Shown here: in pieces, positions 20,586 through 20,653 of the stretch | Position numbering within the stretch: the stretch's first letter is position 1 | How the letters are laid out: the number at the start of each line of letters is the position of its first letter | Assembly: GCA_028687585.1 (NCBI GenBank) | Contig: JAQTZV010000026.1 | Location: 1-64,000 of the forward strand | Direction: 5' to 3' | Source of the DNA: Desulfuromonadaceae bacterium | Lineage (GTDB): Bacteria > Desulfobacterota > Desulfuromonadia > Geobacterales > Pseudopelobacteraceae | Length of the DNA: 64,000 bases | Position numbers and translations under genes: made by a program | The notes under the pieces: generated by a model | Seen by the model: only the letters and a program-made list of their open reading frames with translations | Told to the model about the DNA's origin: nothing | Database searches by the model: none

Positions 20586-20653
20586 GTCAACAGGGGGTTC
20601 CATCCAATCTCAAGAACTGTTGGCTTCGGGTACCGTGCTGGGATGGCGGCACG
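20586..20653 (+). ncRNA. Two-hairpin motif with complementary loops, copy B, in the rtcB 5' UTR
   Basis: GTCAACAG..CTGTTGGC, then CGTGCTG-GGATGG-CGGCACG; loop CCATCC is perfectly complementary to GGATGG. Confidence 0.55.

What the first reader, a model, noticed from the sequence alone, without database searches (positions are those of the whole stretch)
20586..20653. Two-hairpin, kissing-loop RNA motif in the rtcB 5' UTR, with a second diverged copy at 17065-17134
Both copies share stem GTCAACAG...CTGTTG(A/G)C, then a second hairpin with invariant loop GGATGG. The second stem differs in sequence but keeps pairing (GCAATGCCG/CGGCATTGC versus CGTGCTG/CGGCACG). The loop of hairpin 1 is complementary to GGATGG in both copies (CCATCC in B; CUAUCC, with one G-U, in A). 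Covariation plus a conserved loop-loop interaction is the signature of a structured RNA. Copy B ends about 30 nt before the rtcB ATG, so it may be a cis-regulator or an RtcB substrate/guide. I did not recognise it as a known class.
Basis: partly seen in the sequence, partly recalled or inferred. Interest (0 to 1): 0.82.

Follow-up and report, generated by a model that had tools for sequence, protein, structure and literature searches.

The report
Shuffled RNA array beside RNA-repair genes
The two matching RNA folds are real and recur in related Geobacter-type bacteria, where they form part of an undescribed, reshuffled string of structured RNAs lying just before genes for mending broken RNA, so they probably work with that repair machinery.

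Summary
A covariance model finds 13 copies in 8 genomes of the order. Across them 94.9% of pair cells are paired and 15 pairs change on both sides (0 of 500 shuffles). It matches no Rfam family. The loop-loop pairing is kept in 76 of 79 cells, but mostly by conservation; the best covariation sign is one copy with matching one-base insertions in both loops.

R is not specific to rtcB. It is one of about ten structured or conserved modules that recur, in different orders but on one strand, upstream of RNA-repair genes in Geobacteraceae. The fullest locus encodes a diverged Ro60 (fold confirmed), the array, RtcB, a polynucleotide-kinase-like protein, Thg1, a broken RlaP and a CCA-enzyme-like protein, beside BrxL. 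The array sits where Y RNAs sit in known rsr-Y RNA-rtcB operons, but resembles none of them.

Most likely R is a folded domain of repair-associated noncoding RNA (about 50%). A cis-acting leader is the main rival. No transcription data were available. Novelty: new variant of a known kind.

The parts
17062..17136 (+). R motif, copy A: two hairpins with complementary hexaloops, abutting module S-T
   Evidence: R3 model 90.9 bits, E 4e-17; pair counts
20583..20657 (+). R motif, copy B: hairpin 2 ends about 30 nt before the rtcB start codon
   Evidence: R3 model 89 bits; related B copies lie before rtcB in G008 and before rlaP in G018 and G035
16926..16970 (+). Module P, 3' part of a ~180-nt RNA (PL-P) whose ends pair; the 5' part (PL) was not found in this window
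16988..17060 (+). Module Q, ~70-nt structured RNA
   Evidence: model R2 82.9 bits; matches in 12 of 143 genomes of the order
17130..17314 (+). Module S-T, ~185-nt RNA closed by a 26-27-nt terminal helix (17130-17156 with 17288-17314)
   Evidence: inverted repeat; 8-sequence consensus with 15 pairs changed on both sides; 10 of 143 genomes
17461..17655 (+). Module U (U1+U2), conserved, probably structured
   Evidence: 73-89% identity to copies in G008, G023, G001 and G021
17656..18001 (+). Modules X (17656-17860) and Y (17892-18001), shared with G021
18142..19961 (+). Two overlapping ORFs (274 and 332 aa) inside the array, hydrophobic or signal-like N termini, no family match
   Evidence: homologues (46% and 44% identity) in the G023 array; no Pfam, NCBIfam or PADLOC match
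20045..20158 (+). Module V
   Evidence: 89% identical to a copy in G023
20312..20388 (+). Module W, ~75-nt RNA with a 10-bp closing stem
   Evidence: 5-sequence consensus, 5 pairs changed on both sides
20388..20582 (+). Module M, conserved stretch preceding R in G000, G008 and G035
20683..21864 (+). rtcB (393 aa), RNA ligase
   Evidence: Pfam RtcB, E 8e-58

Best explanation
R is a compact structured RNA domain: a bulged hairpin and a second hairpin whose hexaloops can pair, giving a folded-back kissing complex. It is one recurring module of a noncoding RNA array that belongs to an RNA-repair locus (Ro60-like protein, RtcB ligase, polynucleotide-kinase-like, Thg1, RlaP and CCA-enzyme-like genes). 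Most likely the array is transcribed with the repair genes and yields small folded RNAs that serve the repair proteins in the place of Y RNAs, as scaffold, decoy or handle for damaged RNA; R would be the rigid recognition or processing domain between neighbouring RNAs and at the start of the repair genes. Shown by comparison: the structure, the recurrence, the single-strand orientation and the gene neighbourhood. Inferred: transcription, processing, binding by Ro60 or RtcB, and any role in repair.
For: R has 13 copies in 8 genomes, 94.9% of cells paired and 15 pairs with changes on both sides, 0/500 shuffles. G-U cells outnumber A-C cells 32 to 9, which favours RNA read from this strand. Neighbouring modules S-T, W, PL-P and Q also keep structure. 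More than 60 module matches in 7 genomes lie on one strand, that of the downstream repair gene where there is one, in differing orders. The array adjoins Ro60-like (G008, G023), rtcB (G000, G001, G008, G021) or rlaP (G018, G035). The Ro60 identity rests on a TROVE profile match, E 7e-9, and the fold match to Ro60 and Rsr structures. Known rsr-Y RNA-rtcB operons have this layout (PMC7790460), and TROVE, RlaP, CCA enzyme and Thg1 are described as RNA-repair parts (PMC7824862).
Against: A Ro60-like gene was found in only 2 of 39 genomes of the genus, not in the window's own. G125, G130, G019 and G032 carry modules with no clear repair gene in the stretch examined, though some contigs are short. 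None of the modules tested matches an Rfam Y RNA or tRNA model. Transcription is untested. Three of 13 copies have a mismatch in the loop-loop helix.
Confidence: 0.5

Rival explanations
1. R is a cis-acting leader of the repair operon: its kissing fold senses something (RNA damage, RtcB itself, a ligand) or controls stability or processing of the message, and the second copy does the same for the RNA downstream of it.
For: In G000, G008, G018 and G035 a copy sits shortly before rtcB or rlaP, and in G008 another lies 18 nt before a 110-aa ORF. These B copies resemble each other more (83% on average) than A and B copies do (77% on average; 71-84% within a genome).
Against: Most A-type copies are followed by the S-T RNA, not by a gene. 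G021 and the rtcB orthologues of G012, G018 and G023 have no R before rtcB. No terminator or sequestered ribosome site is visible; the GGAG ribosome site about 10 nt before the ATG lies outside the motif.
Confidence: 0.27
2. All modules are domains of one long structured RNA (a giant noncoding RNA) whose domain order varies between strains, and R is one of its domains.
For: The modules are near-contiguous over 1-3 kb, on one strand, with no plus-strand terminator-like site in the window's array. R hairpin 2 abuts and shares bases with the S-T closing helix in G000, G035 and G125.
Against: Order and content differ strongly and ORFs interrupt the array; a single cooperative fold would hardly tolerate such shuffling.
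Confidence: 0.13
3. R is a DNA-level mobile or recombination element (integron attC-like site, REP or MITE) that reshuffles cassettes.
For: Module order is shuffled, ORFs without known function lie between modules, and two direct R copies bracket the stretch in four genomes.
Against: Only two copies per genome; the attC boxes are absent by inspection; the nearby integrase belongs to an IS91 unit and scores below the integron-integrase cutoff; orientation is uniform and the G-U bias points to RNA.
Confidence: 0.06

Closest known systems
[quoted passage not shown] described in PMC7790460)
   Same: Noncoding RNA between or beside a Ro60-family gene and rtcB; S-T and PL-P have end-to-end closing helices as Y RNAs do (the last point from general knowledge of Y RNAs).
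   Different: About ten dissimilar modules instead of one or two Y RNAs; no match to Rfam Y RNA or tRNA models; R is a two-hairpin kissing fold; most carriers lack a detected Ro60-like gene.
RNA-repair gene sets of phages and bacteria with TROVE, RlaP, CCA enzyme, Thg1 and RNA ligases (described in PMC7824862)
   Same: The same kinds of protein occur at the G008 locus and in part elsewhere.
   Different: That text mentions a tRNA-like partner of TROVE proteins; a multi-module RNA array is not mentioned in the passages read.
Narrow Geobacter riboswitch candidates (yjbM, nifV motifs; PMC11109978)
   Same: Rare structured RNAs in Geobacter, placed before genes.
   Different: Different genes; rtcB is not mentioned in that paper; R is not tied to one gene.

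Membership tests
Y RNA | Matches a Y RNA or tRNA-like covariance model | tested here: not met
   No Y RNA or tRNA match at E up to 10 over window 16900-20900, nor up to 3 in the G008 and G021 arrays; ARAGORN finds no tRNA in the window
Y RNA | Encoded next to a Ro60/Rsr gene | tested here: inconclusive
   Met in G008 and G023; no Ro60-like gene found in the window's genome or other carriers
Y RNA | Bound by Ro60 through the helix formed by its ends | not testable with these tools
   S-T and PL-P have such helices; R does not; binding needs experiment
Riboswitch or cis-regulatory leader | Consistently upstream of the same gene or function | tested here: inconclusive
   5 of 13 copies directly precede a gene; the others precede RNA modules or no gene
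Riboswitch or cis-regulatory leader | Expression platform: terminator or sequestered ribosome site | tested here: not met
   No plus-strand terminator-like site in 15880-22100; the ribosome site is outside the predicted fold
Any Rfam 15 family (ribozymes and riboswitches included) | Score at or above gathering threshold | tested here: not met
   Only a group II intron elsewhere in the window
Integron attC site | RYYYAAC...GTTRRRY core boxes and an integron integrase | tested here: not met
   Boxes not matched by inspection (sequences); nearest integrase 204.6 bits against cutoff 265
Ro60/TROVE protein (516-aa protein of G008 and G023) | TROVE (HEAT-like) ring plus vWA domain fold | tested here: met
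   Profile match to TROVE chains E 7e-9; predicted fold matches Ro60 and D. radiodurans Rsr structures, E down to 4e-13; Pfam's own models do not reach their cutoffs

The most novel reading that the evidence does not exclude
A reshuffling array of unrelated structured RNAs, exchanged between strains like immune cassettes, supplies decoys, substrates or scaffolds to a Ro60/RtcB/RlaP repair system that undoes RNA cleavage during phage or toxin attack. R would be its recurrent kissing-loop connector.
Probability: 0.25. Interest if true: 0.82.

Novelty: new variant of a known kind. Interest (0 to 1): 0.62.

Why it matters
The RNA partners and substrates of bacterial Ro60/RtcB repair systems are poorly known. 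A locus that encodes several conserved folded RNAs beside a Ro60-like protein, RtcB and end-repair enzymes gives defined RNAs to test for binding, cleavage and ligation, and a set of natural rearrangements showing which modules travel with which enzymes. It also adds several RNA structures that are absent from Rfam.

Tried and rejected
Rfam at gathering and permissive thresholds: nothing for the motif. Integron attC and REP/MITE: rejected. Spread to plasmids: no match. Viral contigs and distant genomes by pattern: the extra hits lack the paired hairpins and complementary loops and are chance. The G104 hit of model R3 (44 bits) lacks the conserved loops; treated as unproven although a Q-like module lies next to it. 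Repeat Z in G001 looked like a module but is REP-like. The 27-nt match on contig C6 is a short shared hairpin, not an array. Sigma-54 promoter search by pattern: none found. A phylum-wide sample of 398 genomes found no further R (strict filters). The papers most likely to describe related RNAs (NAR gkw722, PMC4201824) were not held, so novelty against them is not checked.

Full report
Observation. Both copies are present as described. They are 75% identical over 69 nt and 3.5 kb apart. The whole genome holds no third copy. Each folds into two hairpins; hairpin 1 has an asymmetric internal loop and a 4-bp apical stem, hairpin 2 presents GGAUGG. Folding energy is clearly better than shuffles for copy A and only weakly so for copy B, so the case rests on comparison.

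Comparison. A model from the two copies, searched in 39 genomes of the genus, found further pairs of copies in four genomes and a marginal single copy in a fifth. A second model from nine copies (R3), searched in 143 genomes of the order, added G125 (another genus, 81 bits) and G130 (40 bits, followed by module S as in the window). A sample of 398 genomes of the phylum added none. In GTDB contigs a degenerate pattern hit Geobacter or Geobacteraceae MAGs and a few chance matches. R is thus a real but narrow family.

Structure. On nine copies, 96.3% of cells pair and 7 pairs change on both sides. On 13 copies, 94.9% pair and 15 pairs change on both sides; no shuffle of 500 reaches either value, and sliding the partners by 1-3 columns drops pairing to 32-49%. 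The 13-copy alignment is fitted to the model, which favours its structure; the nine-copy one is not. The loop-loop helix taken alone is 96.2% paired but has no double change. It is supported by conservation, by a copy in G023 where both loops gain one complementary base (CCUAUCU with GGAUAGG), and by G001 (CCCAUCC with GGAUGGG). Copies G035a, G018a and G130 each have one mismatch. A permutation of loops among copies gives P = 0.001, helped by loop length. So the kissing interaction is likely but not proved.

Surroundings. The stretch 16926-20657 is an array. Blast among loci shows that segments P, Q, R, S-T, U, X, Y, V, W and M recur in other genomes in different orders: G000 P Q R [S T] U X Y ORFs V W M R rtcB; G008 R ORF [S T] Q U PL P W M R rtcB; G035 Q PL M R [S T] W R rlaP; G018 Q PL P Q R [S T] R rlaP; G021 PL P S U X [S T] Y U rtcB; G001 PL R? 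[S T] Q U rtcB; G023 Ro60 R [S T] ORFs [S T] Q U ORFs, rtcB remnant. More than 60 module matches share one strand, that of the downstream repair gene where one exists. Opposite-strand matches are the S/T cross-matches (the two are complementary), a 30-nt X fragment in G023, and W in G019. Several modules keep structure by paired changes: S-T (a ~185-nt RNA closed by a 26-bp helix), PL-P (ends pair, with compensatory changes), W and Q. U, X, Y, V and M are conserved but their structure was not tested by covariation. In R, G-U cells exceed A-C cells 32 to 9, and the other modules lean the same way; structure prediction itself favours G-U, so this is supporting evidence only.

Genes. The G008 locus encodes a 516-aa protein, proteins with CxxC motifs, the array, RtcB, a 387-aa protein, a polynucleotide-kinase-like protein, Thg1, a broken RlaP and a CCA-enzyme-like protein, next to BrxL. 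The 516-aa protein is a diverged Ro60: weak single-sequence matches, a profile match to TROVE chains at E 7e-9, and a predicted model (pLDDT 81) whose best PDB matches are Ro60, Rsr and phage TROVE structures. Known operons place Y RNAs between rsr and rtcB (PMC7790460), and TROVE, RlaP, CCA enzyme and Thg1 are described as RNA-repair parts (PMC7824862). The window's own locus keeps only rtcB. No Ro60-like gene was found in its genome, and G125, G130, G019 and G032 show modules without clear repair genes in the stretch held. The link is therefore strong where repair genes are present, but not universal.

Position of R. Four B-type copies lie shortly before rtcB or rlaP and are more alike (83%) than A and B copies are (77%). 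Most A-type copies precede S-T. R is thus a recurring module with at least two conserved settings, one of them the leader of the repair genes. Neither a terminator nor a masked ribosome site is evident.

Conclusion. R is a new structured RNA motif, best read as one domain of a noncoding RNA array that belongs to Ro60/RtcB-type RNA repair in Geobacteraceae. It stands in the place of Y RNAs but cannot be filed as a Y RNA, because the models do not match and the fold differs. A cis-acting role of the B copy is the main rival. Transcription, binding and function are untested.

Noticed in passing
window 18142-19961: Two overlapping ORFs with hydrophobic N termini, no known family, conserved with ORFs in the G023 array (44-46% identity).
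   Followed up: partly
L022 9122-9507: First 52 codons of rtcB joined directly to the end of a CCA-enzyme-like gene: remnant of a repair operon after an internal deletion.
   Followed up: partly
window 21921-21966: Partial second copy of module V (78%) just after rtcB.
   Followed up: no
window 22049-29999: HigBA-like toxin-antitoxin pair, a serine recombinase, a PLD-domain protein with weak ZacB similarity and a protein like the C-terminal part of Dsr1: a probable defence island.
   Followed up: partly
window 51305-51432: Group II intron D1-D4-3 match, minus strand.
   Followed up: no
window 11558-13500: IS91-family transposase with an adjacent XerA/integron-like tyrosine recombinase.
   Followed up: partly
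L091 8494-11274, L020 6857-8013, L021 6045-7201: Small orphan protein families (about 100-165 aa, plus longer variants) recur beside the arrays; they match no family and may be further parts of the locus.
   Followed up: partly
window 17126-17136: The 3' strand of R hairpin 2 (copy A) overlaps the 5' strand of the S-T closing helix, so the two stems compete; the same overlap is seen in G035 and G125.
   Followed up: no
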